A stretch of 40,829 nt of DNA, taken from the NCBI GenBank assembly GCA_030527665.1, contig JAUNAK010000021.1, positions 1 to 40,829 of the forward strand, given 5' to 3'. The position numbers were made by a program, and so were the translations under genes. The notes beneath the pieces were generated by a model, which did no database searches, was not told the DNA's origin, and saw only the letters and a program-made list of their open reading frames with translations. The stretch is from Eubacteriales bacterium (GTDB lineage: Bacteria; Bacillota; Clostridia; Lachnospirales; Lachnospiraceae). Below are positions 10,364-23,935 of the stretch, piece by piece; position 1 is the first letter of the stretch; every line of letters begins with the position of its first letter.

Positions 10364-10424
10364 GGGGAACCTCCTGTCATTCATACTTATCTCTCTTGTT
10401 CCTCTGCTTCCCTTCCCTGTGTGC

Positions 10425-10520: not shown

Positions 10521-10580
10521 ACCTTCTGCTCTGCGCTTTCGGAAACCAGTCGGCTGCCCGTCATGCGGACACATACAGTC

Positions 10581-10610: not shown

Positions 10611-10618
10611 CAAAAATC

Positions 10619-10641
10619 GCCCGTATCCGGAAGATACGGGC
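10619..10641 (-). terminator. Terminator of the glutathione peroxidase gene
   Basis: A 9-bp perfect stem GCCCGTATC/GATACGGGC with a 5-nt loop, followed on the minus strand by GATTTTTG. The plus side is also T-rich. It lies 53 bp past the peroxidase stop. Confidence 0.85.
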
Positions 10642-10693
10642 AAATTATTTTTGTCAGAAATGATTTTATTATTAATAAATTCGGATTCAGCGA

Positions 10694-11236
10694 TTACAGA
10701 AGCGCTTTTACAGCTGCATCTACGTCCTTCATATCAGCGGTCGGCTCGAATCGGGCAACAACCTCACCATCTCTGTTTACAAGGAATTTTGTGAAGTTCC
10801 ACTTGATATCCGGATTGTTCTTGTAATCCTTGTCGATTTTCTTGAGCATAGCGCTCATGGCAAGCGCTTTCACCCCTTTACCGAAACCAGCAAATCCCTG
10901 CTGCTCCTTCAGATAGCCGTACAGCGGAAGTGCATTCTCACCGTTTACATCGCTCTTCTTCATCTGCGGGAATTTTGTATTGTAGTGAAGGGTACAGAAC
11001 TCATGAATCTCCTCATCGGTTCCCGGTGTCTGTCCGGCAAACTGGTTGCAGGGAATGTCCAGGATATCGAATCCCTTCTCTGCATAATCCTCAAACATCT
11101 GCTCCAGCTCCTTGTACTGCGGAGTAAAGCCGCAGCCGGTTGCTGTATTCACTACCAGAAATACTTTACCGCGATACTGCTCCAGAGATACTTCCTCACC
11201 ACGTGCGTTTAATACATTGTACTCATAAATAGACAT
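10694..11236 (-). CDS. Glutathione peroxidase family protein (Cys type)
   Basis: A thiol peroxidase of the GPx family, reducing hydroperoxides in the cytoplasm. The catalytic tetrad is readable: peroxidatic Cys35 in NTATGCGFTPQY (cysteine in place of selenocysteine), Gln65 in PCNQF, and Trp146-Asn147 in KWNFTKF. A second cysteine at 81 in EIHEFC is in the place of the resolving cysteine of thioredoxin-dependent members, so thioredoxin rather than glutathione is the likely reductant in a clostridium. The length of 180 aa is normal. It is monocistronic, with a strong promoter and a perfect palindrome over the predicted transcription start, implying repression relieved by peroxide or a related signal. 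Confidence 0.93.
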   Translation of the reverse strand: MSIYEYNVLNARGEEVSLEQYRGKVFLVVNTATGCGFTPQYKELEQMFEDYAEKGFDILDIPCNQFAGQTPGTDEEIHEFCTLHYNTKFPQMKKSDVNGENALPLYGYLKEQQGFAGFGKGVKALAMSAMLKKIDKDYKNNPDIKWNFTKFLVNRDGEVVARFEPTADMKDVDAAVKALL

Positions 11237-11285
11237 CTGCTGTTCCTCCTGTTAAATTATATATGTTCGCTTTTTAATTTTGTGA

Positions 11286-11304
11286 AATTGTATTTGATAC
11301 AATT
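11286..11304 (-). promoter_or_regulatory. Perfect 8-3-8 palindrome over the peroxidase transcription start
   Basis: AATTGTAT-TTG-ATACAATT is a perfect 19-bp inverted repeat, two bases downstream of the -10 box and so covering +1. The half-sites resemble those of MarR/OhrR-type repressors more than the 7-1-7 PerR box. The binding protein is not in the window. Confidence 0.75.
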
Positions 11305-11305
11305 G

Positions 11306-11334
11306 ATTCTAATCCAACAGCACCATTCTGTCAA
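11306..11334 (-). promoter_or_regulatory. Promoter of the glutathione peroxidase gene
   Basis: Minus strand: consensus -35 TTGACA (11329-11334), 17-bp spacer, -10 TAGAAT (11306-11311). The predicted start lies in the adjacent palindrome. Confidence 0.82.
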
Positions 11335-11385
11335 CTACTTTTTTCACTTTTTTTAGATATTTGCTTCGATTTATTCTACGCAGAA

Positions 11386-11419
11386 GATCCGCAGATTCTC
11401 CTGAGAAAATCTGCGGATC
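11386..11419 (-). terminator. Hairpin downstream of the GH32 gene
   Basis: A 12-bp perfect stem GATCCGCAGATT/AATCTGCGGATC with a 10-nt loop, 110 bp past the fructosidase stop. The U-run after it on the minus strand is weak (TTCTGCG), so termination may be incomplete. Confidence 0.6.
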
Positions 11420-11528
11420 AACACCATTCCTTATCATACGAATGAACCTGCATGCAGATCATCTTTCCGGATCCGCATTATATATGCCGTTCTTCCCGTA
11501 TCTCTTATCTTATTTCATTACAAGCATC

Positions 11529-13004
11529 TTACTTCATTACAAGCTCATATTTTTCCACATCGATCACAGCAGTTCCCTGCGCCGAGAAACGAATTCCTTC
11601 CGACTGCAGCGGAGTAACCATGGCCATACTGAAAACCTGCTCGCCATCGTTTACAAACAGTTCCGCAGAATTGCGGTCCAGAATGAAGCGAAGTTTGATC
11701 TCACCATTTCTGTCTGCCACACGCATTTTGCGCTGGCAGAGAACATCCCGAATCAGTCCGGAATATGTTCTGTCCGCTTCCATCATGTTTCTCGCCGGAT
11801 CATAGGTAAATACAGTTGTATTTTCCTCGTCACAGGCAATTTCCACGGTAAAGGAATCATAGCTGCCGCCCTTGACCGTCACTGTCATATCCAGATATCT
11901 TCCGCGGATACCCTCCAGTTCACAGTCTCCGGCAACCGTAACATCCGTATAGACGGTCTTTCCGGTTCTGTAATTCTCGATCTCCCGGATGGGTATCTGC
12001 CAGATACGGCCGTTTTTCAGTGTCAGTTCTCTCGGAATGGTCATCATGCCGTTCCACTTCCGTCCCTGCGGCAGGAAGTTGTTATCCCAGGACTGCATCC
12101 ATCCAACCATTACCCGTCTGCCATCCGGAAGCAGCAGGGTCTCCGGTGCATAAAAATCGAAGCCGTAATCCAAAGCCCGCGCATCTCCATAGGAATAGAC
12201 ATGCTTTTCTGCATCGTAGTCACCGGTGAAATAGATTGCATTGTTTCCGTTGTGGAACTCATATCGGTCTGCACGCATATCCTGCGGGGAAGTGATCAGT
12301 ACGTGCTTGTCTCCCAGTGCAAAAAAATCCGGACACTCCCACATGCCGCCGTATCTTCCGTCATTATGTGCCAGAACCGTTTCATATTTCCAGTTTCTAA
12401 GATCGGTACTGGTAAACAGAAGGATCTGCCCGAAACGATTCTCATCCCGGTTTCCGGCGATCATGCAGTAATGATCACCTTCCTTCCAGAACTTCGGATC
12501 CCGAAAGTCGGTTCGGTTAAAGCCGTCAGGCAGGTCCTCGCCCCGAACCACCGGATTGTTTTCGTATTTGCTGTAATTGACTCCGTCACCGACGGCAAGA
12601 CACTGGTTCTGCAGCTCGGTCTCGGTTCCGTCTCCATTCGGCACTTTGCTCACTCCGGTATACAGCAGCACATGTCCCTCCTCCGTTTCCATAGCCGTAC
12701 CGGAAAAGCATCCGATGGCATCCGGATCCGAATCCGGTGAAAGAGCCGCCGGAAGAAACTCCCATCTGATCAGATCCTCACTGACTGCATGTCCCCAGTG
12801 CATGGGACCCCAGCAGGTATCATATGGATAGTACTGGTAGAACAGATGTGTCTTTCCCTGATACACGGAAAAACCGTTTGGATCGTTCATCCATCCAACC
12901 AGCGGTGTCAGATGAAAAGCCGGGCGATCCTTCTCACCGATGGCTTCCGACGCCTTCTTCTCATATGCACGTGTTTCTTCTATTGTATATCTGCGAAATT
13001 CCAT
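11529..13004 (-). CDS. GH32 beta-fructofuranosidase / sucrose-6-phosphate hydrolase
   Basis: Glycoside hydrolase family 32 enzyme that cleaves beta-fructosidic bonds in sucrose, fructo-oligosaccharides or their phosphates. The three catalytic blocks are present: WMNDPNG with nucleophile Asp41, FRDP at 167-170 (transition-state stabiliser) and WECPDFF with acid/base Glu223. A beta-sandwich domain fills residues ~340-491. At 491 aa it has normal length. No signal peptide, so it acts inside the cell on imported sugar. It is the last gene of the operon permease-permease-binding protein-hydrolase, 123 bp after the binding-protein gene. Because import is by ABC transporter and not PTS, unphosphorylated fructosides are the likelier substrate. 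Confidence 0.93.
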   Translation of the reverse strand: MEFRRYTIEETRAYEKKASEAIGEKDRPAFHLTPLVGWMNDPNGFSVYQGKTHLFYQYYPYDTCWGPMHWGHAVSEDLIRWEFLPAALSPDSDPDAIGCFSGTAMETEEGHVLLYTGVSKVPNGDGTETELQNQCLAVGDGVNYSKYENNPVVRGEDLPDGFNRTDFRDPKFWKEGDHYCMIAGNRDENRFGQILLFTSTDLRNWKYETVLAHNDGRYGGMWECPDFFALGDKHVLITSPQDMRADRYEFHNGNNAIYFTGDYDAEKHVYSYGDARALDYGFDFYAPETLLLPDGRRVMVGWMQSWDNNFLPQGRKWNGMMTIPRELTLKNGRIWQIPIREIENYRTGKTVYTDVTVAGDCELEGIRGRYLDMTVTVKGGSYDSFTVEIACDEENTTVFTYDPARNMMEADRTYSGLIRDVLCQRKMRVADRNGEIKLRFILDRNSAELFVNDGEQVFSMAMVTPLQSEGIRFSAQGTAVIDVEKYELVMK

Positions 13005-13044
13005 ATTTGTTCTCTCTTCCTGCGATGGGTCTCTGATATAAATG

Positions 13045-13112
13045 GAGCTGACGCCCCAAATGTTCTATCCTGCGTTTAGCATCACATTCTATCACATTCT
13101 GTTTGTCAGCTC
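13045..13112 (-). other. Intercistronic stem between binding-protein and GH32 genes
   Basis: GAGCTGAC (13045-13052) and GTCAGCTC (13105-13112) form a perfect 8-bp stem with a 52-nt loop. The loop holds an exact 10-bp tandem duplication, ATCACATTCT twice (13081-13100). It could protect the 3' end of the binding-protein mRNA. No U-run follows. Confidence 0.4.
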
Positions 13113-13127
13113 TGATATGTTTTTATG

Positions 13128-14804
13128 TTATTTTGCATCTGCGTAAAAGGCATCCAGATATTTCTGGTAGATCTCCAGATACTTCGGAAGTCCGTATGCA
13201 TCCAGATCTTTGAGATACTGATCCCAGTCTGCATCGGTGAATCCATTCATGATCCAGTCGGATTTCTTTGCATTGATATTTTTCTGAATATCTGCCTGCA
13301 GATTGGACAGTTCCTCTGTATCCTCGCGATTCATGAATACGTTTGGATATACATACTTTGTATTCATATCCTGTGTATAGATGTCCTTGATCCAGTCCAG
13401 ACGATACTGTGCATCATCCGGGCAGGTTACATAAACGCCGTAGTACTCATCCAGAATTGCCAGCGGTCCGGCAACGTTCTCTGCCTCACGAACCTCTACC
13501 GGAGAAGCATCACCCAGCGGTGCATGTTTCAGCATATCTTCACCAGCATCATTTTTTCCAAGTTCAAAAATATCAAACTCATCGTCTTCGCCATAGGTTC
13601 CCCAGTTATTCTGCGGAGACTGGAACGGATCATACATCTGATCAAGCCATGCACAAACCAGTGCCGGATTCTTTGCTACAGAAGTAACTACGCAGCGTCC
13701 TCTGTCATATCCACTTGTGAAGGAACCATTCTGCGGAGTAATGTTTCTTGTGTCTGCAGTCAGTGCCGGAAGCGGAACCCAGTCTTCCAGATTGTCGATG
13801 TTGGCAACATCCCAGCTGAAGCATACGCCGTAGCGTCCGGACTTACCTTTTGAAACATACGTGGACCACTCCTGTGTAAATGCCTCCGGATCGATCAGTC
13901 CTTCTTCATATAATTTATGCAGCCAGGTCAGACCATCTTTGTAGCCCTGCTGTGTCGCACTGCAGATTACTTTCAGATCATCGGTTACGGCAATATGACG
14001 GCCTCTGTCAGCATCTCCGTATCCTTCACCGAAGCCATTGATAATGATTGCCGGATCCTGGTCTCCGTCATTGACGATACAGGACATCGGAATAATATCA
14101 CCTTCGATCCCAAACTCAGCCTGCAGCTCAGAGGAATGATCACGGAATGCGATCAGAACCTGTTCAAATTCATCAACGGTAGTCGGCATTTCCAGTCCCA
14201 GGAAATCCATCCATTTCTTGTTGATAAAGCTCATGTCACCGACAGTCTGGATTGCTGTCTTGTTTGCACCCAACTGCTCGATCCACGGCAGGGACCAGAT
14301 ATGGCCTTCTGTATCAGTTGTCATGGTACGATATTCCGGATATTTATCAAATACCGCTTTCAGATTCGGCATGTAGGCATCGATGTAATCTTCCAGATTG
14401 ATGATAACACCCTGATCGGCATATTTCAGAAGATCACTGTCACTGAATCCGGCTGTAAAAATGAAATCGGTCAGTGAATTCACATCTGCCATTGCCAGAG
14501 AGATCTTGTCGGACCACTGGTCGCCCTGGATCGCTGTCCACTCGATCTCAACATTGGTCTTCTCCTGCAGTCTCTTGAAGATCGTACGATTGTTTGGATT
14601 CGATTCGGTATTTGCCGGATAGCTGATCATACCGGTCAGTGTTGTCTTCTCTGCCAGCGGCATTGCTACAGATGCCGGATCCACCTCTTTAAATGTTCCG
14701 TCATTCAGTTCCACTTTGGAGCTGCTTCCGCAGCCTGCCATGGAGATCACGGTCGCTGCTGCAAGTGTAACTGCAAGCATTCTTTTGACTACGCTCTTTT
14801 TCAT
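13128..14804 (-). CDS. Extracellular sugar-binding lipoprotein of a CUT1 ABC importer
   Basis: A 558-aa solute-binding lipoprotein. Residues 1-24 are a lipoprotein signal ending in the lipobox SMAGC, so Cys25 is the anchor. The large size and the body (VDEFEQVLIAFRDH, GRCVVTSVAKNP, QYRLDWIKDIYTQD) match the LplA-type family that works with LplB/LplC-like permeases on oligo- and polysaccharides. It is placed after both permease genes, with a 91-bp gap containing a small CCGGT/ACCGG hairpin (14844-14860), and before the GH32 gene. Substrate inferred from that neighbour: beta-fructosides. No ATPase gene lies in the locus; a shared MsmX-type ATPase elsewhere is expected for such systems. Confidence 0.9.
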   Translation of the reverse strand: MKKSVVKRMLAVTLAAATVISMAGCGSSSKVELNDGTFKEVDPASVAMPLAEKTTLTGMISYPANTESNPNNRTIFKRLQEKTNVEIEWTAIQGDQWSDKISLAMADVNSLTDFIFTAGFSDSDLLKYADQGVIINLEDYIDAYMPNLKAVFDKYPEYRTMTTDTEGHIWSLPWIEQLGANKTAIQTVGDMSFINKKWMDFLGLEMPTTVDEFEQVLIAFRDHSSELQAEFGIEGDIIPMSCIVNDGDQDPAIIINGFGEGYGDADRGRHIAVTDDLKVICSATQQGYKDGLTWLHKLYEEGLIDPEAFTQEWSTYVSKGKSGRYGVCFSWDVANIDNLEDWVPLPALTADTRNITPQNGSFTSGYDRGRCVVTSVAKNPALVCAWLDQMYDPFQSPQNNWGTYGEDDEFDIFELGKNDAGEDMLKHAPLGDASPVEVREAENVAGPLAILDEYYGVYVTCPDDAQYRLDWIKDIYTQDMNTKYVYPNVFMNREDTEELSNLQADIQKNINAKKSDWIMNGFTDADWDQYLKDLDAYGLPKYLEIYQKYLDAFYADAK

Positions 14805-14895
14805 AGTTTTGTCTCCTTATGAATATGAAAACTCTATATCCACCCGGTCATATGAACCGGATAAACTTCATGTATCTGGATAGCCGGTACGTTTA

Positions 14896-15795
14896 TCAAC
14901 CCTTTACCGATCCTGCCATAATGCCCGCATCGAAATATTTCTGGAAGAACGGGTACATAACAAGCAGCGGCAGACTGGAAATAATGATCGTTGCATACTT
15001 TAAAAGCTCAGCCAGCTGTGCACGCTGTGCGGTACTCTGCATATCCGCGATCATTCCGGACTCCGGCTGGTTCTGGATCAGAATCGAACGAAGCACCAGC
15101 TGCAGCGGCTGTTTTGCCGCATCGTTCAGATAGATCATGGCATCAAAGTAACTGTTCCACATGGCAACAAACTGCCACAGTGCAAGTACGGCGATCAGCG
15201 GAAGGCATACCGGAAGCAGAATTTTGAAGAAATAGGTTACCTCGCTGGCACCATCCACCTCTGCTGCCTCACGCAGCTCCTGCGGAACTCCCTGATAGTA
15301 TGTTCTGGCGATGATCATGTTCCAGACGCTGAATGCACCCGGAAGAATGATTGCCCACATGCTGTCCTTCAGTCCCAGGCCGGTAACAAGAAGGTAGGTC
15401 GGGATCAATCCGCCTCCGAAAAACATGGTGATCATAAAGATCACATTGAAAAATTTTCTTCCCTTAAAATCCACACGAGACATCGGATAGGCTGCCAGCA
15501 GTGTGATGAATACAGATACGACCGTAAATACCAGTGAGTAGATCACCGCGTTTTTGAAGCCGACCCAGATCTGCGCATTGGAAATAACACGTTCATAGGC
15601 GGTCGTCGTCCATTTGCTGAAATCAAAGGAAATTCCACTGTTCTGCAGTGTGATCGGATCCATGAAGGAAGCAATCACGATATAAAGCATCGGTACGATA
15701 ATTGCCAGTACAAACAATCCCAGAAGGATATAGCCGATCATCAGTAAGGTTTTATCCTGACCGGAAAGTCTGGCAAACTGACTTTTCTTTTTCAT
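14896..15795 (-). CDS. CUT1 ABC sugar permease, LplC-like
   Basis: Inner-membrane permease of the carbohydrate uptake-1 family, 299 aa with about six membrane segments. The cytoplasmic EAA loop that docks the ATPase reads EAAEVDGASEVTYFFKI near residues 200-215. I place the start at 15795 (MKKKSQFARLSG), which has AGAGGGGGA upstream and begins 13 bp after the preceding permease stop; the reading frame extends 11 codons further into that gene without a ribosome binding site. It forms the translocation pore with the LplB-like permease encoded just upstream. Confidence 0.9.
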   Translation of the reverse strand: MKKKSQFARLSGQDKTLLMIGYILLGLFVLAIIVPMLYIVIASFMDPITLQNSGISFDFSKWTTTAYERVISNAQIWVGFKNAVIYSLVFTVVSVFITLLAAYPMSRVDFKGRKFFNVIFMITMFFGGGLIPTYLLVTGLGLKDSMWAIILPGAFSVWNMIIARTYYQGVPQELREAAEVDGASEVTYFFKILLPVCLPLIAVLALWQFVAMWNSYFDAMIYLNDAAKQPLQLVLRSILIQNQPESGMIADMQSTAQRAQLAELLKYATIIISSLPLLVMYPFFQKYFDAGIMAGSVKG

Positions 15796-15808
15796 TGCTG
15801 TCCCCCTC

Positions 15809-16759
15809 TTACAAGCCCTTACCGTCATTCATCTTCTCAACGATCTTGTTAACTGCGATCAGCAGAATAACATTGATAACGGTATTGAACAGACCAACTG
15901 CCGTTGAAAAACTGTAGTCACCATCCAGAAGACCTTTCTTATATACATAGGTTGCAATGATCTCGGATGCGCCCAGGTTCAGGTCCGTCTGCAGGGCATA
16001 TGCTTTTTCAAAACCGATGCTCATGATGTTTCCTGCCTGAAGAATGAACTGGATAATAACCATATCCTTGATTGCCGGCCACTCAACCGCTTTGATCTGC
16101 TGAATGATATTGGCTCCGTCGATCAGAGCAGCTTCCCGAAGTTCCTGACTTGCATTGGAAAGGGAAGCGGTATACATGATGGATGCCCAGCCGGCTCCCT
16201 GCCAGATTCCGCTGATGATGTAAATCGAACGGAAGGCTTCCGGCATTGTCATGAAGTTGATGCTGGAATGAAACATCAGGTTGACCGGTCCGGTAACGGA
16301 CAGGAAGATCTTGACGATACCGCAGAGTACGATGACCGAAATGAAGTTCGGCATATACAATACCAGCTGTATCTTCTTCTTGATTCCGGTACTCTGGATC
16401 CGATTCAGAAGAAACGCCAGAATGATCGGAACCGGAAAGCCCCAGAGCATTCCGTAAATACTAAGTTTCAATGTATTTACCAGATACCGCATAAAATCCG
16501 GTGATGATAAAAATCTCCGGAAATACTTCAATCCTACCCACCTGCTTCCGAATACGCCGGCAATCGGATTGTAATCTTCAAAGGCAATCAATATTCCGCC
16601 CATCGGGATATACCTGAAGATCAATGTCAATGCCAGTGCCGGAAGCAAAAAGATCACATACAGCTGCCAGTGTGATCTCATATAAGCAAGTGTGCCCTTG
16701 AGATCCGCCCCGCGTCCTGCTTTCGTTCCTGCAGCAGCCGCTTTTGCTTTACCGCTCAT
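15809..16759 (-). CDS. CUT1 ABC sugar permease, LplB-like
   Basis: First gene of the importer operon; 316 aa. An unusually Ala/Lys-rich cytoplasmic N-terminus (~20 residues) precedes six predicted membrane segments, beginning with LYVIFLLPALALTLIF. IPMGGILIAFEDYNP and the EAA loop REAALIDGANIIQQIK are characteristic of LplB/YtcP-type permeases for complex saccharides. Its promoter lies in the 426-bp divergent region shared with the LacI-family regulator, under an array of repeated boxes. Confidence 0.9.
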   Translation of the reverse strand: MSGKAKAAAAGTKAGRGADLKGTLAYMRSHWQLYVIFLLPALALTLIFRYIPMGGILIAFEDYNPIAGVFGSRWVGLKYFRRFLSSPDFMRYLVNTLKLSIYGMLWGFPVPIILAFLLNRIQSTGIKKKIQLVLYMPNFISVIVLCGIVKIFLSVTGPVNLMFHSSINFMTMPEAFRSIYIISGIWQGAGWASIMYTASLSNASQELREAALIDGANIIQQIKAVEWPAIKDMVIIQFILQAGNIMSIGFEKAYALQTDLNLGASEIIATYVYKKGLLDGDYSFSTAVGLFNTVINVILLIAVNKIVEKMNDGKGL

Positions 16760-16781
16760 TACGATTCCCCTTCCTTGATTT

Positions 16782-17085
16782 GTGCATTTGTAAAATCGCG
16801 TTGTTGCTTTTGTGACTTCAGAATAGCATCATTGTTACAAAATGTCAACTTTCATTTTTACATTTGCACGATTCATATTTGCACATTTTTCACATCGCTT
16901 TTTTGTGCATTTTTACTTCCGCGTTTCAGGAATCAACTATTTTTCCGCAATACATAAGAAAAAACAGGCTGTTTTCCTGTCACAATACCACTTTGTCATT
17001 TGCACAAAGGCTCACAAATGCAAAAAGCATCTCCTTCCTCACCGTTTTTACATTATATTTTACATTTGTAACATTTCATTTGACA
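16782..17085. promoter_or_regulatory. Operator array: nine CATTTG-centred boxes
   Basis: Nine variants of a 12-bp box related to TTACATTTGTAA lie in 304 bp, in both orientations: 16782-16793, 16835-16848 (14 bp, four central T), 16858-16869, 16873-16884, 16905-16916, 16994-17005, 17012-17023 (inverted), 17060-17071 (the near-perfect palindrome TTACATTTGTAA) and 17074-17085. One overlaps the -35 of the importer promoter and one the -35 of the regulator promoter. The adjacent LacI-family protein is the obvious candidate binder, which would make the region a negatively autoregulated switch. Confidence 0.65.
16820..16848 (-). promoter_or_regulatory. Promoter of the fructoside importer operon
   Basis: Minus strand: consensus -35 TTGACA (16843-16848), 17-bp spacer, -10 TATTCT (16820-16825). 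Box 16835-16848 overlaps the -35. The leader would be about 55 nt. Confidence 0.7.
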
Positions 17086-17107
17086 TTTTATGTTTCTCCA
17101 TTATAAT
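17080..17107 (+). promoter_or_regulatory. Promoter of the LacI-family regulator operon
   Basis: Consensus -35 TTGACA (17080-17085) and consensus -10 TATAAT (17102-17107), 16 bp apart, with box 17074-17085 covering the -35. The leader to the regulator ATG is about 72 nt and carries an AAAGGAG site. Confidence 0.8.
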
Positions 17108-17185
17108 AGTGGTATAAGAAAGTAAAACATATCGTATAATCACATATATACACTGCATAAAAACACTTAAAGGAGACCCGACCAA

Positions 17186-18256
17186 ATGGCAGGAAGAGTA
17201 ACGATCCAGGACATCGCAGATGCACTGGGAGTTTCACGTAATACCGTTTCAAAAGCTTTAAACAATACAGGAATTCTGGCCGAAGCGACCAAAGAAAAGG
17301 TTTTGCAGAAGGCAATGGAGATGGGATACAAGCAGTTCTCCTATGTTAATTATACCAACCAGATGGAGCCCGGATATCTGGCTCCCGCTTCGGAGGACTG
17401 CTCCGAGATTGCTCTGTTCACCGCTTATTTTATGGATAATTCTCATTTCGGCCGCTCTATGCTGGACAAATTTCAGCAGGAGATCTCGATACTCGGATAC
17501 AGCCTGACCATGCACCGAGTACTTCCCGCCAATCTGGAGAATATGACCCTTCCGGCTTCCTATAATCCGGAGCGTACAGCAGGCATTGTCTGCATTGAGC
17601 TTTTTAACTATGAATATGCACAGATGGTCTGCGGTCTCGGCAAGCCTACGCTGTTTGTAGACGGTCCGCTCCCCAATAAAAAAGGACCTCTGAATACGGA
17701 TTTTCTGTGTATGGATAACCAGACGCACATCTTTTCCGTAGTCAATCACATGGCAGAGATCGGAAAAACACGAATCGGTTTTATCGGCCAGTATAATCAC
17801 TGCACTTCTTTTTATGAGCGCTACATTGCCTATCGCAATGCCATGTATCTGGCCGGACTACCAATCGATGAATCACACTGCCTGATTCATAATTATCCGG
17901 GCGTCGAGCGGCCGAACGGAGAAGATTATCTCCGTTATCTGGAAGCGGGCATAGCAAAGATGGATGCTCTGCCGGATATCTTTATCTGTGCCAATGATTT
18001 TGTTGCACTGGATGCCATGCGTGTCTTCAAAAAATTGGGGATCTCCGTTCCGGAAGATGTTTATCTGTGCGGTTTCGATGATTCTCCGGAATCCCGCATC
18101 GTCACCCCTGCACTGACCACGATCCATATTCACACACAGATCATGGGCTTCTCCGCCGCACAGCTTCTGCTGTCCCGCATCAAAGAGCCTACTCTGAATA
18201 ATCGTACGATCTACACAGAAACAAGCCTGATCTACCGGGCTTCCACCAACGATTAA
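17186..18256 (+). CDS. LacI-family transcriptional regulator
   Basis: A 356-aa regulator. The N-terminal helix-turn-helix is VTIQDIADALGVSRNTVSKALN (residues 5-26, given here in parts: IQDIADALGVS and RNTVSKALN), and a periplasmic-binding-protein-like sensor fills residues ~70-350, including DIFICANDFVALDAMRV and LCGFDDSPESR. The hinge after MEMGYK reads QFSYVNYTNQ and lacks the usual YxPN-x-x-AR-x-L pattern whose leucine inserts at the central CG of standard LacI operators. The surrounding boxes also lack a central CG. It is divergent from the importer/GH32 operon and heads an operon with YesL and a membrane protein. Likely effector: a fructoside or its breakdown product. Confidence 0.9.
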   Translation: MAGRVTIQDIADALGVSRNTVSKALNNTGILAEATKEKVLQKAMEMGYKQFSYVNYTNQMEPGYLAPASEDCSEIALFTAYFMDNSHFGRSMLDKFQQEISILGYSLTMHRVLPANLENMTLPASYNPERTAGIVCIELFNYEYAQMVCGLGKPTLFVDGPLPNKKGPLNTDFLCMDNQTHIFSVVNHMAEIGKTRIGFIGQYNHCTSFYERYIAYRNAMYLAGLPIDESHCLIHNYPGVERPNGEDYLRYLEAGIAKMDALPDIFICANDFVALDAMRVFKKLGISVPEDVYLCGFDDSPESRIVTPALTTIHIHTQIMGFSAAQLLLSRIKEPTLNNRTIYTETSLIYRASTND

Positions 18257-18324
18257 TAAAGGTCTTCTGCATCACCTGCAGATTTCGCATTATTAAATTT
18301 CAGTACCATTCAAAGGAGGCCTCT

Positions 18325-18999
18325 ATGAACCGTCTATTCAATCCTGACGCACCGATCATGCATCTACTCTCCAAAATAGCAATGAGCATCTATCTCAATG
18401 CACTCTGGATGATCTGCTGCATTCCAATTGTTACCATAGGTGCCTCCACGACCGCACTCTTCTATGTCAGTCAGAAGCTTGTAAAGAATGAAGAAGGGCA
18501 TCCTACCCAAAATTTCTTTCATTCCTTTCGTGCAAACCTGAAACAGGCCACCGGCATCTGGCTGATCCTGCTGGCTGTCGGCCTTGTACTCGGCGTGGAT
18601 GCCTATGCCTTATATCATCTGCGCTTCAGCAATGCTTTCTGGACGGTTCTGACAGCGGTCTTTATCGTTGCCCTTGCCGCCTATGTTATCGTGCTGCTGT
18701 ATATTTTTCCGCTGCTCGCCCACTTCGACAATACGACCGGTGCCATGTTCCGCAATTCCCTGATCATCGGCATGCATTTTCTGCTCTGTACCGTGCTGAT
18801 GGCTGCCGTATATGCCGCAATGGTTTTCCTTATCATTCGAATCTTTACACCGGCATTTCTTCTCGGCATGGGAGTATGTGCACTGCTGTGCTCCTATCTT
18901 CTGTCCGGAATCCTGCGGCAGATGGAAGGCTCTGATCCGGAAGGCAGCTCAAGCAGCAGCAACAGCTCTGACGGAAACACGGAGGACGAAAACAGATGA
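18325..18999 (+). CDS. YesL-family (DUF624) membrane protein
   Basis: A 224-aa polytopic membrane protein with the DUF624 signature near the N-terminus (MNRLFNPDAPIMHLLSKIA and WMICCIPIVTIGASTTALFY, split here into its two conserved parts) and about five membrane segments. The C-terminal tail is a Ser/Asn-rich cytoplasmic or extracellular stretch (GSSSSSNSSDGN). YesL proteins are encoded beside CUT1 transporters for plant or host oligosaccharides and may support the permease, but no biochemical role is established. It lies 68 bp after the LacI gene and overlaps the next gene by ATGA. Confidence 0.85.
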   Translation: MNRLFNPDAPIMHLLSKIAMSIYLNALWMICCIPIVTIGASTTALFYVSQKLVKNEEGHPTQNFFHSFRANLKQATGIWLILLAVGLVLGVDAYALYHLRFSNAFWTVLTAVFIVALAAYVIVLLYIFPLLAHFDNTTGAMFRNSLIIGMHFLLCTVLMAAVYAAMVFLIIRIFTPAFLLGMGVCALLCSYLLSGILRQMEGSDPEGSSSSSNSSDGNTEDENR

Positions 19000-19658
19000 G
19001 CAAACCATTGAGCAAATGGTCGAAGGACTGGTCATCGAAGCAAAAGCTGCAGTATATATGGGATTATTACAAACTGCCTCTGTTTGCTGCAGTGATTCTC
19101 CTCTATGTTCTGGGTTCCCTTTTTTATGGACGTCTGACCAGAAAGGAAATCGTTCTGTACACAGCATTGATCAATGTGGAGCCATCCTCTGCACTGGTAC
19201 AGCAGCTGACCGATCATTACCTTGCCGATGAAATATCCGGAGATTCCGCAGCTACTTCCCGCGCCAGCCGTCAGGAAGTATATCTCTATCAGAATCTCTT
19301 TCTGTCTGCAGCCGACAATGCAGATCCGCAGTACACTGCTGCATCCCGCATGAAGATCCTGGCCGCAATCGATGCTGAAGAACTGGATGTTATCGTGACA
19401 TCCCGTGAAGTAATGGATGCTTTCGCAGAAAAAGAATATCTATATGATCTGACAGAACTGGTGGATGCAGATGTACGTTCAAACCAGTCGACTCTGTACC
19501 GGTACGACTCCGCTTCCTCCGACCGGATACTGGGACTGCATATATCGGAAGATTCAATTCTTGAACCCTCCAGGTATGATCAGGATCTGTATGTCGGAAT
19601 CCTGGTCAATACGCCAAGAATCGAGCAGGCATCCGCCTATCTGAAGTATCTGTATTGA
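18996..19658 (+). CDS. Membrane-anchored YesL partner, binding-protein-like
   Basis: A 220-aa protein translated by ATGA overlap with YesL. A basic N-terminus (LSKWSKDWSSKQKLQYIW) is followed by one membrane segment at ~28-46, so the remaining ~170 residues are outside the cell. The outer part resembles pieces of extracellular solute-binding proteins: MKILAAIDAEELDVIVTSRE is like the hinge region with a xGxLDVxI motif, and VGILVNTPRIEQASAYLKYL is like their late helix. It is too short to be a complete binding protein. It may help the YesL/CUT1 complex; no function can be assigned with confidence. Confidence 0.7.
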   Translation: MSKPLSKWSKDWSSKQKLQYIWDYYKLPLFAAVILLYVLGSLFYGRLTRKEIVLYTALINVEPSSALVQQLTDHYLADEISGDSAATSRASRQEVYLYQNLFLSAADNADPQYTAASRMKILAAIDAEELDVIVTSREVMDAFAEKEYLYDLTELVDADVRSNQSTLYRYDSASSDRILGLHISEDSILEPSRYDQDLYVGILVNTPRIEQASAYLKYLY

Positions 19659-19791
19659 ATCAGCATATAAGAGATCCGTTTCTGCAGTATCGATCCATCA
19701 CACATGCGTATACACGCTATCCTTTCAAATGCGACAGGACAACCGTTGATCGGTTCTCCTTTCTGCAGATAAAACCTCTATACAAGCCAAA

Positions 19792-19817
19792 AGGACAGGA
19801 GCATCTGCTCCTGTCCT
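19792..19817 (-). terminator. Bidirectional terminator between convergent genes
   Basis: An 11-bp perfect stem AGGACAGGAGC/GCTCCTGTCCT with a 4-nt loop. On the minus strand TTTTGG follows, serving the lipoprotein gene at 19893; on the plus strand GCTTCGTTTATTC follows, which could end the YesL operon. Confidence 0.75.
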
Positions 19818-19892
19818 GCTTCGTTTATTCTTACCTCTATCGAAAATCCGTATTTACAGCAATGTAAGTCACCAGACGCAAGCTTCTGTTTC

Positions 19893-20555
19893 TTATGCGA
19901 TCTGCTCCGCCAGCTGCTGTACCTCATCTTCTGTCAGTCCCTTGTCCGAATAGATTGAAAACGAATATCCGTTTTTGCTCCATGTCACATTCCGAATGGT
20001 TCCGTTCTCACCGCGCAGTTTCAGCTCTGCGCCCTCGAATTCCACATATTTTTCTTCCGGATACTCATTATAATCACCGCTGATATCTTCATGTCCGGCC
20101 TGTTTGCGAATGCAGATCTCCTGCTCTGCATTGCGGTACACCGCCTGGAACATCTGACCATCCATGACCGAAATGTTCATTTCCGTAAATCCTTCGATCT
20201 GCTCCGGTACCTGCACATCGAAATCGATATGCTTTTTCGCCTCATCCACAGAATCATATTCCACAAACGGATTTGCCATTCCCACAATTTCCGATTCCGA
20301 AACCGTTGAGGATGCATTGCTGTCAGCAGCTGATGTACTGCCTGCGGCTGTTGCTGCCGTACTGTCGGCTGCTGATGTACTGCCGGCAGCTGTCGATACC
20401 GCACTGTCGGCTGCAGATGCGCAGCTTACTGCGGATGCGGCCTTGCTGTCCGCCGAAGCCGCCGTCTGCTTTCCTCCGCAGGCTGCCAGTGCAGCTGTAC
20501 AGGCTCCGAGTGTCAGAAGTACAGTCAGTTTATGATAATATTTTTTCGCATTCAT
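19893..20555 (-). CDS. Lipoprotein with Ala/Ser/Thr-rich spacer
   Basis: A 220-aa secreted lipoprotein with lipobox LAAC (Cys26). Residues ~30-90 are a low-complexity spacer with two copies of TAAGSTSAADS, visible as a DNA repeat. The folded part (residues ~92-220) has alternating beta-strand-like stretches (FTEMNISVMDGQMFQAVYRN, EICIRKQAGHED, IRNVTWSKNGYSFSIYSD) ending in a helix EDEVQQLAEQIA, a pattern reminiscent of DUF4367/anti-sigma C-terminal domains. Function is unknown. It follows the PAP2 gene by 43 bp and may be read through from the lipid operon or from its own promoter. Confidence 0.75.
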   Translation of the reverse strand: MNAKKYYHKLTVLLTLGACTAALAACGGKQTAASADSKAASAVSCASAADSAVSTAAGSTSAADSTAATAAGSTSAADSNASSTVSESEIVGMANPFVEYDSVDEAKKHIDFDVQVPEQIEGFTEMNISVMDGQMFQAVYRNAEQEICIRKQAGHEDISGDYNEYPEEKYVEFEGAELKLRGENGTIRNVTWSKNGYSFSIYSDKGLTEDEVQQLAEQIA

Positions 20556-20598
20556 CGCCTTCTGTATGATCCGGGTTCACTCTTGCGAGCCCTGCGGA

Positions 20599-21246
20599 TC
20601 ATTCCCCTTTCTCCCGTTTTCCGGGTATTGCCATTTTCTTCGATATCCAATATGCCAGCTCTGCTGTCAGTATACCACCAAATACATCAGCCAGCACATG
20701 CTGTTTAGTCGTTAATGTGGATACACAGACTGCCAGCGAAAATACCAGTGTTCCGTATCGAAAAAACGGTGAACAGTCCTCTTTTCTCTTTCGCATACCG
20801 ATCCAGCAGAACCAGCTGACCATACAGTGAATTGACGGAAACAGGTTATCCGGTGCATCGATCCTGTACAGGAAACGCATCAGAATATCCCACACACCAT
20901 TCCCGGTTATTTCCGGACGCAGCATCGTCGTCGGCATAAGCAGATAAAGCAGCAAAGCGATCGTCTTGCCGATGATGTCCGCCCGGAAGAAGATCTTCGC
21001 CTCCTTCCGGTCTCCGCATGCGATATACACATAGGTAAGCGCCCACACCAGAAAACAGATCAGATAGATCGCGATCGTCCATGTCACAAGCGGGATCCGT
21101 TCATCGATCCCGGAAGTCAATACATAATGCTGTCGATTCTTCGTCAGGATCCTTGCTCCGTAAAATACCGATTCGTTCCAGATCAGGCACAGGATCGGGG
21201 CAAGCAGGTTCCGCCTGTTCTCTTTCCATATTTTCAGGTATTTCAT
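20599..21246 (-). CDS. PAP2-superfamily membrane phosphatase
   Basis: A 215-aa multi-pass membrane protein with the acid-phosphatase/vanadium haloperoxidase core: RP in MLRPEI (motif 1, partly degenerate), FPSIHC (motif 2, PSxH near residue 139) and STLTTKQHVLADVFGG (motif 3, H and D). The arrangement, with PSIH and a widely spaced H-x3-D, is like the PAP2_3/inositol-phosphorylceramide-synthase-like group. It dephosphorylates lipid phosphates such as phosphatidate or phosphatidylglycerophosphate, or moves a lipid head group. I use the ATG at 21246 with AAGGGA upstream; a TTG three codons earlier is less likely. It is the last enzyme gene of the phospholipid operon. Confidence 0.87.
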   Translation of the reverse strand: MKYLKIWKENRRNLLAPILCLIWNESVFYGARILTKNRQHYVLTSGIDERIPLVTWTIAIYLICFLVWALTYVYIACGDRKEAKIFFRADIIGKTIALLLYLLMPTTMLRPEITGNGVWDILMRFLYRIDAPDNLFPSIHCMVSWFCWIGMRKRKEDCSPFFRYGTLVFSLAVCVSTLTTKQHVLADVFGGILTAELAYWISKKMAIPGKREKGE

Positions 21247-21277
21247 ACTATTCAAATCCCTTTTACTTTTGCTTTTT

Positions 21278-22084
21278 CTATTTCCTCACATTGATTCGCT
21301 GTCCGGCTTTCACTGGTACCTCTTTTCCTTCACGAGTCTGCGCATACAGTTTTGATGAAAACTGTACCTGACCGGGTTTCACAAGCAGAATAATGGTAGA
21401 ACCTCCGTATTCGAAATATCCCTTTTCCTGCCCTCTTCGGATGACAGCCTCCTGATGCAGGTTTTGAATGCGTCCCACCAGCATGGCCCCTACTTCCATC
21501 TGGATCACATCGCCGAAGTTCTCGGTATGAAGCACGGTATATTCTCTCGCATTCTCAGTGAACACAGGCACATTTCGCAGTGCGATCGGGCGGACGGTAT
21601 GCAAAACACCGGGAATACAGATATTTTTTCCTTTGGTTCCGCTGTCAGGATACATATACCGGTGATAGTGATTCACACAGAGCCGGAACACCAGACAGGT
21701 ACCGCCCTCATATTCCGCGGCCAGCTGCGGATCCCGAAGCAGATCCGGAATACCGAAGCGGGACTGCTTGACCGGTATGACCAGGTCTTTTTCGATCGGA
21801 TAGATACTTAACAGTCCGTCACAGGGAGCTATAAATGCACCCGGATCCCTGTCCACCGGCCGGCAGCCGGTTCGAATCTTCCGGCAGAAAAACTGATTGA
21901 AGGATTCGTATTTTCTGTTTTCATACTCCCGCAGGTTGATATGATTCTTGCGTACAAAACCGGGAATCAGAAAACGAGAGCATCGGCTGTCACAGAATTT
22001 CCCCGCCAGGCGGGAAAGGGAAGGTCTGGTCAGGACCTTCAATATGCATCTGCCGATGACGGTTTCATATAAAAAACGCAGCAT
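21278..22084 (-). CDS. psd: Phosphatidylserine decarboxylase proenzyme
   Basis: Converts phosphatidylserine to phosphatidylethanolamine. The self-cleavage motif reads YGGST (residues 226-230): chain cleavage between Gly228 and Ser229 would generate the pyruvoyl group, in place of the LGST of E. coli. The other triad residues are in APCDG (Asp89) and VNHYHRYMYP (His141). At 268 aa it is the shorter clostridial type. The gene lies directly after pssA, separated by 74 bp with a hairpin, so both steps of PE synthesis are encoded together. Confidence 0.93.
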   Translation of the reverse strand: MLRFLYETVIGRCILKVLTRPSLSRLAGKFCDSRCSRFLIPGFVRKNHINLREYENRKYESFNQFFCRKIRTGCRPVDRDPGAFIAPCDGLLSIYPIEKDLVIPVKQSRFGIPDLLRDPQLAAEYEGGTCLVFRLCVNHYHRYMYPDSGTKGKNICIPGVLHTVRPIALRNVPVFTENAREYTVLHTENFGDVIQMEVGAMLVGRIQNLHQEAVIRRGQEKGYFEYGGSTIILLVKPGQVQFSSKLYAQTREGKEVPVKAGQRINVRK

Positions 22085-22117
22085 ATAAACTATTCCCTTT
22101 CCATATCATTTTCTAAA

Positions 22118-22156
22118 GGCAAAATGCGAATCTCGAAAGAGAATTCGCGTTTTACC
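22118..22156 (-). other. Hairpin between pssA and psd
   Basis: A long imperfect stem of roughly 16 bp (GGTAAAACGCGAA against TTCGCATTTTGCC, with one bulge and one mismatch) begins three bases after the pssA stop. On the minus strand TTTAGAAAA follows, too weak for a clear terminator. It may act as an attenuator or mRNA stabiliser inside the lipid operon. Confidence 0.5.
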
Positions 22157-22158
22157 TT

Positions 22159-22851
22159 TTATTTCAGCACCATGAAGAACAGAAGGATCAGGAAGTCCAC
22201 CGCTCCGACACCTACCATGATCAGGATCTCGCGAAGGCCAGGTTTCGGAACCTTGAATTTAGAGATAAAAGCAATGCCGACAAGCAGCAGCCCCAGAAAG
22301 TAGATCGGTGTGATATCTCTCGGCTGAATATACTGTATGGTCAGGATCAGCGGAAAAATGATTGCCGAACTGGTTACCGGCAGGCCCTCGTAGTATTTGC
22401 GGCAGCCGCCTTCCTTCTGCTGTCTCTCTTCTTCGGTCACGTTGAAGTAGGCCAGACGGATCAAAGCAGCCAGCAGGAAGAACAGCATGATCGCCAGACT
22501 CAGAATATTCAGGATCATACCATTGGTGTTGACCCGCAGTTTCGATGCTACACTGGGAATCGTTTCATATACACGCAGCATCGCACTTCCTACACAGATC
22601 GGAAGCACACCAAAAGCAACCAGATCTGCCAGAGAATCGATCTGTACGCCGTAGTTCATTTCCATGCGTGTACGATTCTTTTTGCTTCTTGCCACTCTTC
22701 CGTCAAAAGCATCACACAAGCCGCTGATCATCAGGAAGAAAATACCCACATACGGATGTCCGGTTCCATGCAGGCTGAACAAAATACCTGCCCCGGCAGA
22801 CAGAAGTGATGCATAGGTCAGCCAAACCGTGTAATCATAAAATCCCAACAT
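22159..22851 (-). CDS. pssA: CDP-diacylglycerol-serine O-phosphatidyltransferase
   Basis: Integral membrane CDP-alcohol phosphatidyltransferase that makes phosphatidylserine from CDP-diacylglycerol and serine. The family motif DG-x2-AR-x(n)-G-x3-D-x3-D is read as DAFDGRVAR followed by YGVQIDSLADL, with a spacer of twelve residues, and the LADLVAFGVLP segment is typical of the serine enzymes. It has 230 aa and about seven membrane segments. It overlaps the flippase-like gene by 17 bp, implying translational coupling, and supplies the substrate for the decarboxylase encoded next. Confidence 0.92.
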   Translation of the reverse strand: MLGFYDYTVWLTYASLLSAGAGILFSLHGTGHPYVGIFFLMISGLCDAFDGRVARSKKNRTRMEMNYGVQIDSLADLVAFGVLPICVGSAMLRVYETIPSVASKLRVNTNGMILNILSLAIMLFFLLAALIRLAYFNVTEEERQQKEGGCRKYYEGLPVTSSAIIFPLILTIQYIQPRDITPIYFLGLLLVGIAFISKFKVPKPGLREILIMVGVGAVDFLILLFFMVLK

Positions 22852-23935
22852 TTTCTCTTTTTCTCCTTATATACCCTATTATCGTTATAATTCCGCCTGT
22901 AATCACACATCCATAAAAGGTGATTCCTCTGCAGATCAGTTCCATATTCACTGCCATGGATTCTCCCAGCAGGTGGGTAAACCCATTGATCATCATATAA
23001 TCAGCCACGCCCATGGCACCGGGAATCGGTATGCTATTCGATCCCACAGCAACAAAACACTGTACCGCAACCGCCTTAAGTGCCAGCAGCCAGTCCTTTT
23101 TCCATGCCATAAACAGGAAGAAGGATACCCCCAGCTGCGAGATCCGCTGCAGTACGTTATAGAAAAAAACGTCCCGCACCACCCGGCGGTCCCCGGCGAT
23201 GATCCCTGCACAGGCATGGTACTGTTCCATCGACTGCAGAAGTTTTCTTCTTCTTTTCTTCCCGTCACGAACCAGCTTCATTTTTTCTCCGACACCGATC
23301 AGCCAGTCGCCCAGACGATAGATCAGCTTTCCCTGTTGAATCAGAAGATAAAACAGTACAGACAGGCCGATGAGAATGACCAGTCCGACGCAGTAGAGAA
23401 TATTGAACCGGATCGACAGATGCGACAGTATATTGCCGAAAAAACAGAAGTTCAACGCTGCAATACTCAGCAGTGCCACACAGTAAAACACCAGATTGAA
23501 CAGCAGTGTTATGGCAACCGCCGAGCCGTTCATGCCGTCCCGGATCATGAAGTAGGCACTGGCCGGCTGTCCGCCGGATGCAGAGGGCGTGATTGCTGAA
23601 AAATACACATCCGCTGCCCCGTAGACCAGACCGGATCCCGGTCTTTTCGTTATGTTTAATGTTTTTGCAATGCGAAGGATCGCCTGACCCTCAAACCAGA
23701 TGAACCCGAACATGCTCATGATTGCCAGCAGCACCCAGCCTCTGTTCATGCTTTGTAAACTGGCCCGGAAATCCTCCAGCCGGAATTCCTTGCTCCTGCC
23801 GATGACCATGGCAATACTTCCGATTGCAATCAGGAAGGAGAGCACAGCCCAGATCACCTTTTTTCTGTTTATTTCACATTTCCTGTTATCGTGCACGGAA
23901 CGTACCTGCCGGCACACGGAACTTATTTTCTTCAT
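22835..23935 (-). CDS. Flippase-like membrane protein (LPG synthase TM-region family)
   Basis: A 366-aa protein with about eight membrane segments of the YbhN/UPF0104/MprF-N-terminal family. Signature blocks are TPSASGGQPASAY and the late PIPGAMGVADY (usually PxPGGxGxxE). MprF's equivalent domain flips aminoacylated lipids; stand-alone members are thought to move lipids or lipid-linked sugars. I place the start at 23935 (MKKISSVCRQ), with GGAAGAGAG upstream; the frame begins ten codons earlier without a ribosome binding site. The start overlaps the 3' end of the upstream glycosyltransferase fragment by 50 bp. Its place before pssA and psd fits export of a lipid to the outer leaflet. Confidence 0.87.
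   Translation of the reverse strand: MKKISSVCRQVRSVHDNRKCEINRKKVIWAVLSFLIAIGSIAMVIGRSKEFRLEDFRASLQSMNRGWVLLAIMSMFGFIWFEGQAILRIAKTLNITKRPGSGLVYGAADVYFSAITPSASGGQPASAYFMIRDGMNGSAVAITLLFNLVFYCVALLSIAALNFCFFGNILSHLSIRFNILYCVGLVILIGLSVLFYLLIQQGKLIYRLGDWLIGVGEKMKLVRDGKKRRRKLLQSMEQYHACAGIIAGDRRVVRDVFFYNVLQRISQLGVSFFLFMAWKKDWLLALKAVAVQCFVAVGSNSIPIPGAMGVADYMMINGFTHLLGESMAVNMELICRGITFYGCVITGGIITIIGYIRRKRENVGIL

What the first reader, a model, noticed from the sequence alone, without database searches (positions are those of the whole stretch)
16782..17085. Dense CATTTG operator array across a divergent sugar-locus promoter region
Nine copies of a 12-bp box close to TTACATTTGTAA lie in 304 bp, in both orientations, and one copy overlaps the TTGACA of each divergent promoter. 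Most LacI-family operators are one or two 14-20-bp palindromes with a central CG. Here there is no central CG, many weak half-palindromes, and the adjacent LacI-family protein lacks the usual hinge-helix sequence. This suggests a LacI-type regulator that binds cooperatively along an AT-rich array, forming a nucleoprotein complex rather than a single-site block. An alternative is that the array binds a different, nucleoid-like factor.
Basis: partly seen in the sequence, partly recalled or inferred. Interest (0 to 1): 0.75.

Follow-up and report, generated by a model that had tools for sequence, protein, structure and literature searches.

The report
Phased operator array for fructan-gene switch
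Between two oppositely facing sugar-uptake operons in a gut bacterium lies a row of near-identical repressor docking sites, spaced in whole turns of the DNA helix and kept in dozens of related bacteria; they appear to belong to an unusual Lac-repressor relative that has lost its normal DNA-bending hinge.

Summary
The array is real. Against a motif learned from relatives, the window has 8 boxes of at least 9 bits between 16780 and 17073 (0.65 in shuffles), 7 in one orientation. All 84 orthologous permease|regulator regions examined have at least 2 boxes (mean 5.0).

The box is a 16-bp even pseudo-palindrome, TTKTRCA-TT-TGYAMAA, centred on TT/AA instead of the CG usual for LacI-family operators. 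Box spacings repeat at about 10.6 bp. A box centre falls on the regulator's -35 in 45 of 66 regions, and 14-16 bp upstream of the permease -35 in 37 of 50.

Boxes follow the regulator. They are kept when it moves elsewhere, recur beside paralogues facing another GH32 gene, and are rare in 11 genomes that keep the permease but lack the regulator. This regulator group lacks a hinge-helix pattern in 122 of 122 upstream-scanned members.

Most likely this is a cooperative, phased operator array of a hinge-less LacI-type repressor of fructan (GH32) loci. Binding, repression and looping are inferred; no binding data exist. Phased LacI sites and hinge loss with a non-CG centre were known separately, so I rate it a new variant.

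The parts
16780..16795 (+). Box 1, TTGTGCATTTGTAAAA, 18.8 bits; centre 61 bp downstream of the start of the permease -35 (about +26 from the inferred start site)
16856..16871 (+). Box 2, TTTTACATTTGCACGA, 21.9 bits; centre 15 bp upstream of the permease -35; 76 bp from box 1
16871..16886 (+). Box 3, weaker (11.1 bits), overlaps box 4 at an 8-bp offset
16879..16894 (+). Box 4, 13.6 bits; centre 23 bp from box 2
16903..16918 (+). Box 5, TTGTGCATTTTTACTT, 12.9 bits
16992..17007 (+). Box 6, TTTGTCATTTGCACAA, 13.2 bits
17010..17025 (-). Box 7, reversed, 10.8 bits
17058..17073 (+). Box 8, TTTTACATTTGTAACA, 20.9 bits; centre 15 bp upstream of the regulator -35
17072..17087 (+). Weak box (6.0 bits) in the register that is fused to the regulator -35 in 45 of 66 regions
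16834..16849 (-). Weak box (6.0 bits) overlapping the permease -35
17080..17107 (+). Regulator promoter TTGACA (17080-17085), 16 bp, TATAAT (17102-17107)
   Evidence: sequence
16820..16848 (-). Permease-operon promoter TTGACA (16848-16843), 17 bp, TATTCT (16825-16820)
   Evidence: sequence
17186..18256 (+). LacI-type regulator, 356 aa: PF00356 HTH and PF13377 sugar-binding core, no hinge-helix sequence
15809..16759 (-). ABC permease (permB), first gene of the divergent operon
14896..15828 (-). ABC permease (permC)
13128..14804 (-). Extracellular solute-binding protein, lipoprotein-like start
11529..13004 (-). GH32 beta-fructosidase / sucrose-6-phosphate hydrolase family (TIGR01322 above cut-off)
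18325..18999 (+). DUF624 / MusI-like membrane protein, found beside the regulator in most of the loci long enough to show it
18996..19658 (+). 220-aa protein with no Pfam match, found with the DUF624 gene in most of those loci

Best explanation
The array is the operator region of the adjacent LacI-type regulator, which controls uptake and intracellular cleavage of fructosides. Each box is a 16-bp dyad, TTKTRCA-TT-TGYAMAA, that one regulator dimer occupies. The regulator lacks the hinge helix that kinks a central CG in ordinary LacI proteins; its boxes have a TT/AA centre instead. I propose that single sites are weak, and that occupancy is gained by several dimers binding on one face of the helix at multiples of 10.6 bp. 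A box at or next to the regulator's own -35 gives autorepression. A pair of boxes flanking the permease promoter (about -51 and +26, 76 bp or about 7 turns apart) holds that promoter shut, possibly as a small loop. A fructo-oligosaccharide or breakdown product would release the complex. Shown from sequence comparison: the boxes, their conservation, register, phase, and dependence on the regulator. Inferred: binding, dimer state, cooperativity, sign of regulation, loop and inducer.
For: Conservation: 84 of 84 regions have >=2 boxes of >=9 bits, mean 5.0; CATTTG is present in 84 of 84. In 66 non-redundant regions the mean is 4.85 against 0.38 in shuffles. At 12 bits, density is 4.11 per kb in the 800 bp upstream of the regulator and 0.038 per kb elsewhere in the loci scanned. 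Link to the regulator: boxes >=11 bits within 500 bp upstream in 48/49 close, 56/67 intermediate and 5/6 distant homologues, against 0/5 and 3/19 for other LacI proteins. permB without the regulator: 1 of 11 regions has a box >=11 bits, while a twelfth genome, where a cut-off regulator was found, has 7 boxes. The best regulator match in those 11 genomes is E 1.4e-23, all matches 23-34% identical, every candidate scored. Boxes stay at the permB|DUF624 promoter when the regulator sits elsewhere (L185, L186; L261; L082). Paralogues 42-43% identical that face another GH32 gene carry boxes in 3 of 3 genomes looked at. Dyad and phase: best period 10.5-10.6 bp, mean resultant 0.35-0.43 at six redundancy cut-offs (largest of 1000 jittered nulls 0.17-0.32). 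Same- and opposite-orientation pairs share the phase. T-runs (R 0.13) and A/T runs outside boxes (R 0.12) show little of it. Register: regulator -35 in 45/66 regions, with an exact TATAAT in 31 of those 45; permease -14..-16 in 37/50 and +60..+62 in 17/50. Hinge: pattern Y.[PA]N..[AG]..L in 0 of 122 homologues of the boxed group and 14 of 24 other LacI proteins; GYKQF in 101 of 122.
Against: No binding or expression data. The matrix was trained on most of the regions scored, so densities there are partly circular; the window leave-out and the untrained loci are the independent tests. The phase null jitters distances and does not model ancestry. Sites of the reversed control matrix at 5 bits also show a weak 10.6-bp phase (R 0.19 over 204 pairs). 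Orientation is strongly biased (397 to 64), which a symmetric dimer does not explain. In the window the fused -35 box is weak, and several spacings are off phase (15, 18, 47 and 89 bp). Both the -15 and +61 boxes are present in only 15 of 50 called permease promoters, so the loop is not universal. At 9 bits, 5 of the 11 permB regions without regulator hold 1-2 weak boxes. Coriobacterial relatives have few boxes, and 3 of 9 of their unlinked permB copies have none >=10 bits. Regulator homologues L208 and L190 have none, and only 1 of 6 in the most distant tier has two or more. Other LacI proteins without a hinge pattern (10 of 24) mostly do not have the box, so hinge loss alone does not predict it.
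Confidence: 0.72

Rival explanations
1. The regulator binds the boxes as an activator (or dual regulator), from the strong sites just upstream of each -35.
For: The strongest window boxes are centred 15 bp upstream of both -35 hexamers, a position compatible with contact to polymerase; 37 of 50 called permease promoters have one at -14 to -16.
Against: The box is fused to the regulator -35 in 45 of 66 regions, and there are boxes at +60..+62 in 17 and at +7..+9 in 15 of 50 permease promoters. These would block polymerase.
Confidence: 0.15
2. A different DNA-binding protein (nucleoid-like factor or another regulator) reads the array.
For: The sites are AT-rich and no footprint exists.
Against: Only 1 of 11 permB regions lacking the regulator has a box >=11 bits; boxes recur beside paralogues of the regulator at other GH32 genes; among own-genome pattern hits listed the only cluster of near-perfect matches is this one.
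Confidence: 0.07
3. The boxes are a compositional by-product of AT-rich, curved promoter DNA.
For: The region is AT-rich, A/T tracts often recur with the helix, and reversed-matrix sites at 5 bits have R 0.19 at 10.6 bp.
Against: Enrichment stands against dinucleotide shuffles. The reversed matrix finds far fewer sites (73 against 323 at 9 bits). A/T runs outside boxes show little phase (R 0.12).
Confidence: 0.02
4. Ordinary independent LacI-type operators without cooperativity; the phase reflects shared ancestry.
For: Orthologous regions are related and many sites may be inherited; the null used does not model ancestry.
Against: The phase persists among 19 regions whose regulators are <60% identical (R 0.43, null maximum 0.32), and peaks appear at several whole numbers of turns.
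Confidence: 0.15

Closest known systems
Canonical LacI/GalR-family operators (LacI, PurR, CcpA; survey PMC4052901)
   Same: Even palindrome; peaks of inter-site distance at 22 and 32 bp, read there as cooperative binding; local regulators mostly autoregulated (section 9 and passages read). By recall, the outer half-site TTGTG matches the symmetric lac operator.
   Different: Centre TT/AA instead of CG (1173 of 1303 regulators have CG, 49 a different pair). Groups of three and four sites were found for only 116 and 5 operons; here the mean is 5 boxes per region.
CytR of gamma-proteobacteria (PMC3454398, passages read)
   Same: LacI member with a flexible linker (title of Jorgensen 1998 seen in the reference list of PMC2978694), relaxed half-site arrangement, sites in whole helical turns; octamer GTTRCATT resembles TTTRCATT.
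   Different: CytR acts with CRP as an anti-activator and its half-site spacing varies; here the dyad spacing is fixed and no second motif stands out among the top 8-mers apart from ribosome-binding and -35 sequences. CytR model score 94 against cut-off 436.
EbgR-like LacI regulators (LacR, GalR, RafR of L. plantarum; PMC2329647, passages read)
   Same: Loss of the hinge leucine coincides with loss of the central CG.
   Different: EbgR-like motifs have a single central C or G; here the palindrome is even with TT. Their insertion before helix 3 was not compared here.
GalR loop at the E. coli gal promoters (recalled, no call)
   Same: Operators flank the promoter, upstream and downstream, with dimers expected to touch.
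   Different: Two sites about 113 bp apart with HU there (recalled); here 76 bp and several further sites.
Roseburia/E. rectale fructan loci Eub-3 and Eub-4 (PMC5320581, passages read)
   Same: GH32 + ABC transporter + LacI-type regulator.
   Different: 'Operator' and 'binding site' do not occur in its main text; whether the regulators are orthologues was not checked.

Membership tests
LacI/GalR transcription factors | LacI HTH domain PF00356 | tested here: met
   43.6 bits, cut-off 27
LacI/GalR transcription factors | Periplasmic-binding-protein-like effector domain | tested here: met
   PF13377 99.2 bits, cut-off 26.5
LacI/GalR transcription factors | Hinge helix with conserved Ala and Leu (AA-51, AA-54; mostly Leu, 82%, at 54; PMC2978694, passages) | tested here: not met
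   KQFSYVNYT in the window; hinge-like pattern in 0 of 122 homologues of the boxed group; none invariant or nearly invariant between Y53 and E74.
Canonical LacI-family operator | Even palindrome of 16-22 bp | tested here: met
   Left and reverse-complemented right halves broadly agree; palindromic consensus at the permease +61 position
Canonical LacI-family operator | Central CG | tested here: not met
   CAnnTG centres in 66 regions: TT/AA 205, TA 30, AT 14, CG 4 (palindromic centres are printed doubled there)
LacI/GalR transcription factors | Homodimer binding its operator | not testable with these tools
   Indirect only: opposite-orientation box pairs share the helical phase
CytR | CytR equivalog model NF008269 | tested here: not met
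   94 bits, cut-off 436
D-fructose-responsive FruR/ScrR-type (TIGR02417) | Subfamily model cut-off | tested here: not met
   20.9 bits, cut-off 389.55
CcpA | Equivalog TIGR01481 | tested here: not met
   54.1 bits, cut-off 442.35
Nucleoid-associated protein array | Sites spread over AT-rich regions irrespective of one regulator | tested here: not met
   0.038 per kb at 12 bits outside the regulator's upstream region; 1 of 11 permB regions without the regulator has a box >=11 bits

The most novel reading that the evidence does not exclude
A whole branch of the LacI family in gut Firmicutes and relatives has replaced hinge-helix intercalation by the conserved MGYKQFsY segment, which reads an A/T core (CA-TT-TG) without the usual kink. 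It regains affinity by assembling several dimers on a helically phased array of about five operators, so that fructan genes are switched by a multi-dimer complex rather than by single-operator binding. Overlapping boxes at 8-bp offsets and the one-way orientation would reflect ordered assembly.
Probability: 0.35. Interest if true: 0.72.

Novelty: new variant of a known kind. Interest (0 to 1): 0.6.

Why it matters
LacI is the textbook single-operator switch, in which the hinge helix inserts at a central CG. Here a widespread group of regulators, linked by gene context to fructo-oligosaccharide use in gut bacteria, appears to work without that hinge and with many phased sites. It gives a natural test of how DNA-binding specificity evolves once the hinge is lost. 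It also gives an operator motif with which regulons of prebiotic-fructan loci can be mapped in Lachnospiraceae; the two papers on such loci in which I looked up terms do not use the words operator or binding site.

Tried and rejected
Free-rate motif EM collapsed onto T-runs and was replaced by a thresholded search seeded on CATTTG. Rfam found no RNA element at 16000-18500 at the gathering threshold. First all-pair spacing counts suffered from rounding to even numbers; redone with exact centres. Single matches elsewhere in the own genome: all 14 places and 30 of the 173 counted became loci and were re-scored, along with five longer stretches. Outside the array they reach at most 17.4 bits and lie mostly inside open frames; not pursued.

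Rejected: nucleoid factor and composition artefact (see rivals). Searching print for the motif letters gave 32 papers, 20 seen in the listing, none about a LacI regulator by title or abstract start. Searches (listings only, apart from the papers named here) showed no description of this group's operator; one search returned 0 papers. Terms were also looked up in PMC7833758 ('LacI', 'operator' and 'binding site' absent) and PMC8579813 (passages).

Weak points of my own method: promoter calls take the best -35/-10 pair anywhere in a region. No permease promoter was called in 16 of 66, and three -35 pairs have impossible negative distances, so some calls are wrong. Regions were taken only where the regulator scored >=250 bits and permB lay divergent within 1500 bp, and they include 60 bases of permB. 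One search left out loci below L032 other than L003-L007. One search left out hits starting after residue 12, with under 150 bp upstream, or duplicates. In some searches at most five candidates per genome were scored; for the 11 genomes that matter this was redone with all candidates scored.

Full report
WHAT WAS GIVEN. The finding names a dense array of boxes near TTACATTTGTAA at 16782-17085, between a leftward ABC-permease operon and a rightward LacI-type gene. I read the region and the ORFs of 10000-26000. Pfam gives LacI HTH plus Peripla_BP_3 for 17186-18256, two BPD_transp_1 permeases, a solute-binding protein, GH32 (11529-13004) and DUF624 (18325-18999). NCBIfam places the GH32 enzyme in TIGR01322, above its cut-off. 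By gene content this is a fructoside uptake and cleavage locus.

IS IT MORE THAN CHANCE? Yes. In the own genome the exact 12-mer occurs once, in this array.

RELATIVES. A regulator homologue at E <= 1e-60 is in 40 of 397 family genomes, with at most five candidates scored per genome, and 80 loci of genome contigs were fetched. Synteny is strong in the loci long enough to show it: permB, permC, binding protein and GH32 on one side, DUF624 and the 220-aa gene on the other. Of 90 permease|regulator regions extracted, two are the window itself and five are exact duplicates. This leaves 84 with the window counted once, and 66 non-redundant ones by shared 10-mers. CATTTG is present in all 84 (mean 3.2). 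The 18 top 8-mers are ribosome-binding sequences or pieces of one motif: TTTTACAT, TGTGCATT, ATTTGCAC, CATTTGAC and the like.

THE BOX. A thresholded matrix search gives 353 sites (14.5 bits). At 9 bits the mean is 4.85 per region against 0.38 in shuffles. Left half and reverse-complemented right half broadly agree. By position, the consensus is TTGTGCATTTGCACAW at the permease +61 site, TTTTRCATTTGCACMA at -15, and TTTTACATTTGACACA where the right half doubles as the regulator -35. It is thus a 16-bp even pseudo-palindrome with a TT/AA centre: among CAnnTG words TT/AA occurs 205 times, TA 30, AT 14, CG 4 (palindromic centres are printed doubled there). In the survey PMC4052901 (section 9 read), 1173 of 1303 LacI-family regulators have a central CG and 49 a different pair.

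SPACING AND ORIENTATION. Centre-to-centre distances of 17-110 bp have a period of 10.6 bp. The mean resultant is 0.35 over 84 regions (largest of 1000 nulls 0.17), and 0.43 over 19 regions whose regulators are less than 60% identical (largest null 0.32, best period 10.5). The null jitters each distance and does not model ancestry. A bootstrap over regions gives 10.5-10.8, on the earlier rounded centres. Same-orientation (318) and opposite-orientation (88) pairs share the phase, at 0.66 and 0.47 bp. This is what a dyad-symmetric unit predicts. T-runs and A/T runs outside boxes show little phase; the reversed matrix at 5 bits shows a weak one (R 0.19 over 204 pairs), and at 9 bits its best period is 8.4 bp over 33 pairs. 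Orientation is biased, 397 to 64, which I cannot fully explain. A separate class of overlapping boxes lies 8 bp apart (34 adjacent pairs).

REGISTER WITH PROMOTERS. A box centre falls exactly at the first base of the regulator's -35 in 45 of 66 regions, and 8 bp further up in 16. Of those 45, 44 have TTGACA and 31 an exact TATAAT at the right spacing. For the permease promoter, called in 50 of 66, a box lies at -14 to -16 from the -35 in 37, at +60 to +62 in 17 and at +7 to +9 in 15; 15 have both -15 and +61. The window has both (boxes 16856-16871 and 16780-16795, 76 bp apart). Its strong regulator box lies at -15 and its fused box is weak.

WHO READS IT? Six tests point to the regulator. (1) At 12 bits, density is 4.11 per kb in 800 bp upstream of it and 0.038 per kb elsewhere in the loci scanned. 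(2) In two same-genus genomes where the regulator is third gene of a DUF624 operon, 4 and 7 boxes (>=10 bits) lie in the permB|DUF624 region or at its very edge, and none (>=9 bits) in the 700 bp before the regulator. In L261 the regulator is on another contig and 4 boxes stay at permB|DUF624; in L082 the regulator is displaced, 4 boxes stay at permB|DUF624 and it has two of its own. (3) In eight coriobacterial or other actinobacterial genomes with unlinked permB, 6 of 9 permB copies have a box >=10 bits upstream; 3 of the 12 genomes asked had no permB match. (4) By homology tier, boxes >=11 bits precede 48 of 49, 56 of 67 and 5 of 6 regulators, against 0 of 5 and 3 of 19 other LacI proteins; two of those three share their region with permB. 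Two of the 11 misses in the second tier are the displaced regulators of test 2. (5) Paralogues 42-43% identical that face a different GH32 gene carry 2, 2 and 3 boxes in three genomes. (6) permB occurs at E <= 1e-115 in 43 of 397 family genomes. Of 12 that lacked the regulator at E <= 1e-60, one proved to have it cut off at a contig end and has 7 boxes. In the other 11 only one has a box >=11 bits; at 9 bits 5 of 11 have one or two. Searched again with every candidate scored, those 11 have no match better than E 1.4e-23.

THE PROTEIN. The HTH is strongly conserved and ends in MGYKQFsY. Y48 is invariant and G47, K49, Q50, F51 and Y53 nearly so among 37 aligned sequences, and none is reported between Y53 and E74. 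A hinge-like pattern (Y.[PA]N..[AG]..L) is found in 0 of 122 homologues of the boxed group and in 14 of 24 other LacI proteins of the fetched genomes; GYKQF is in 101 of the 122. So hinge loss is not unique to this group, and the 10 other hinge-less proteins mostly lack the box. PMC2978694 (passages) ties hinge Ala-51 and Leu-54 to the central CG and calls exceptions rare. PMC2329647 (passages) reports EbgR-like proteins that lost both. The group here fits that correlation with a different, even, TT-centred site.

MECHANISM. I favour repression by several cooperatively bound dimers: occlusion of the regulator's own -35, and clamping or looping of the permease promoter by flanking boxes. Boxes on -35 and downstream of the start favour repression over activation; the -15 boxes leave a dual role open. 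Binding, inducer and loop are inferred.

NOVELTY. Phased LacI sites and hinge-less members are each known. The combination (a conserved hinge replacement, a TT-centred palindrome and about five phased sites per region, kept across Lachnospiraceae and beyond) I found in none of the searches listed. These cover open-licence PMC papers only, and I saw mostly listings.

Noticed in passing
18325-19658: A DUF624/MusI-like membrane protein (NF052431 122 bits, below its cut-off of 160) and a 220-aa protein without Pfam match follow the regulator in most loci that show them, and head its operon in two same-genus genomes; role unknown.
   Followed up: partly
16871-16894: Boxes overlapping at an 8-bp offset (half-site direct repeats); 34 such adjacent pairs in 66 regions. 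Two dimers could hardly bind both at once.
   Followed up: partly
L008, L011, L018, L020, L031: Other LacI-type proteins of the same genus lack the hinge pattern in different ways (for example YGYDFSR, HGYDLGR); 10 of 24 checked have no hinge-like pattern, so hinge-less members may be common in these bacteria. Their operators were not looked for.
   Followed up: no
L188:5103-9014, L189:5471-9376: Very large (about 1300 aa) open frames next to the second GH32 gene of the paralogous boxed locus; no convincing Pfam match.
   Followed up: no
16 genomes of the window's genus: The regulator is patchy: only 6 of 16 genomes (the window's included, some incomplete) have a close match (E <= 1e-80), suggesting loss or transfer of the locus.
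   Followed up: no
19893-20555: Lipoprotein-like protein with a repeated Ala/Ser-rich stretch (AGSTSAADS) and a weak DUF4367 match just below its cut-off.
   Followed up: no
L187, L188, L189: L188 and L189 hold two boxed regulators of the group on the fetched stretch, and G318 (L187, L047) has two in one genome; the shared box makes cross-regulation between fructan loci possible.
   Followed up: no
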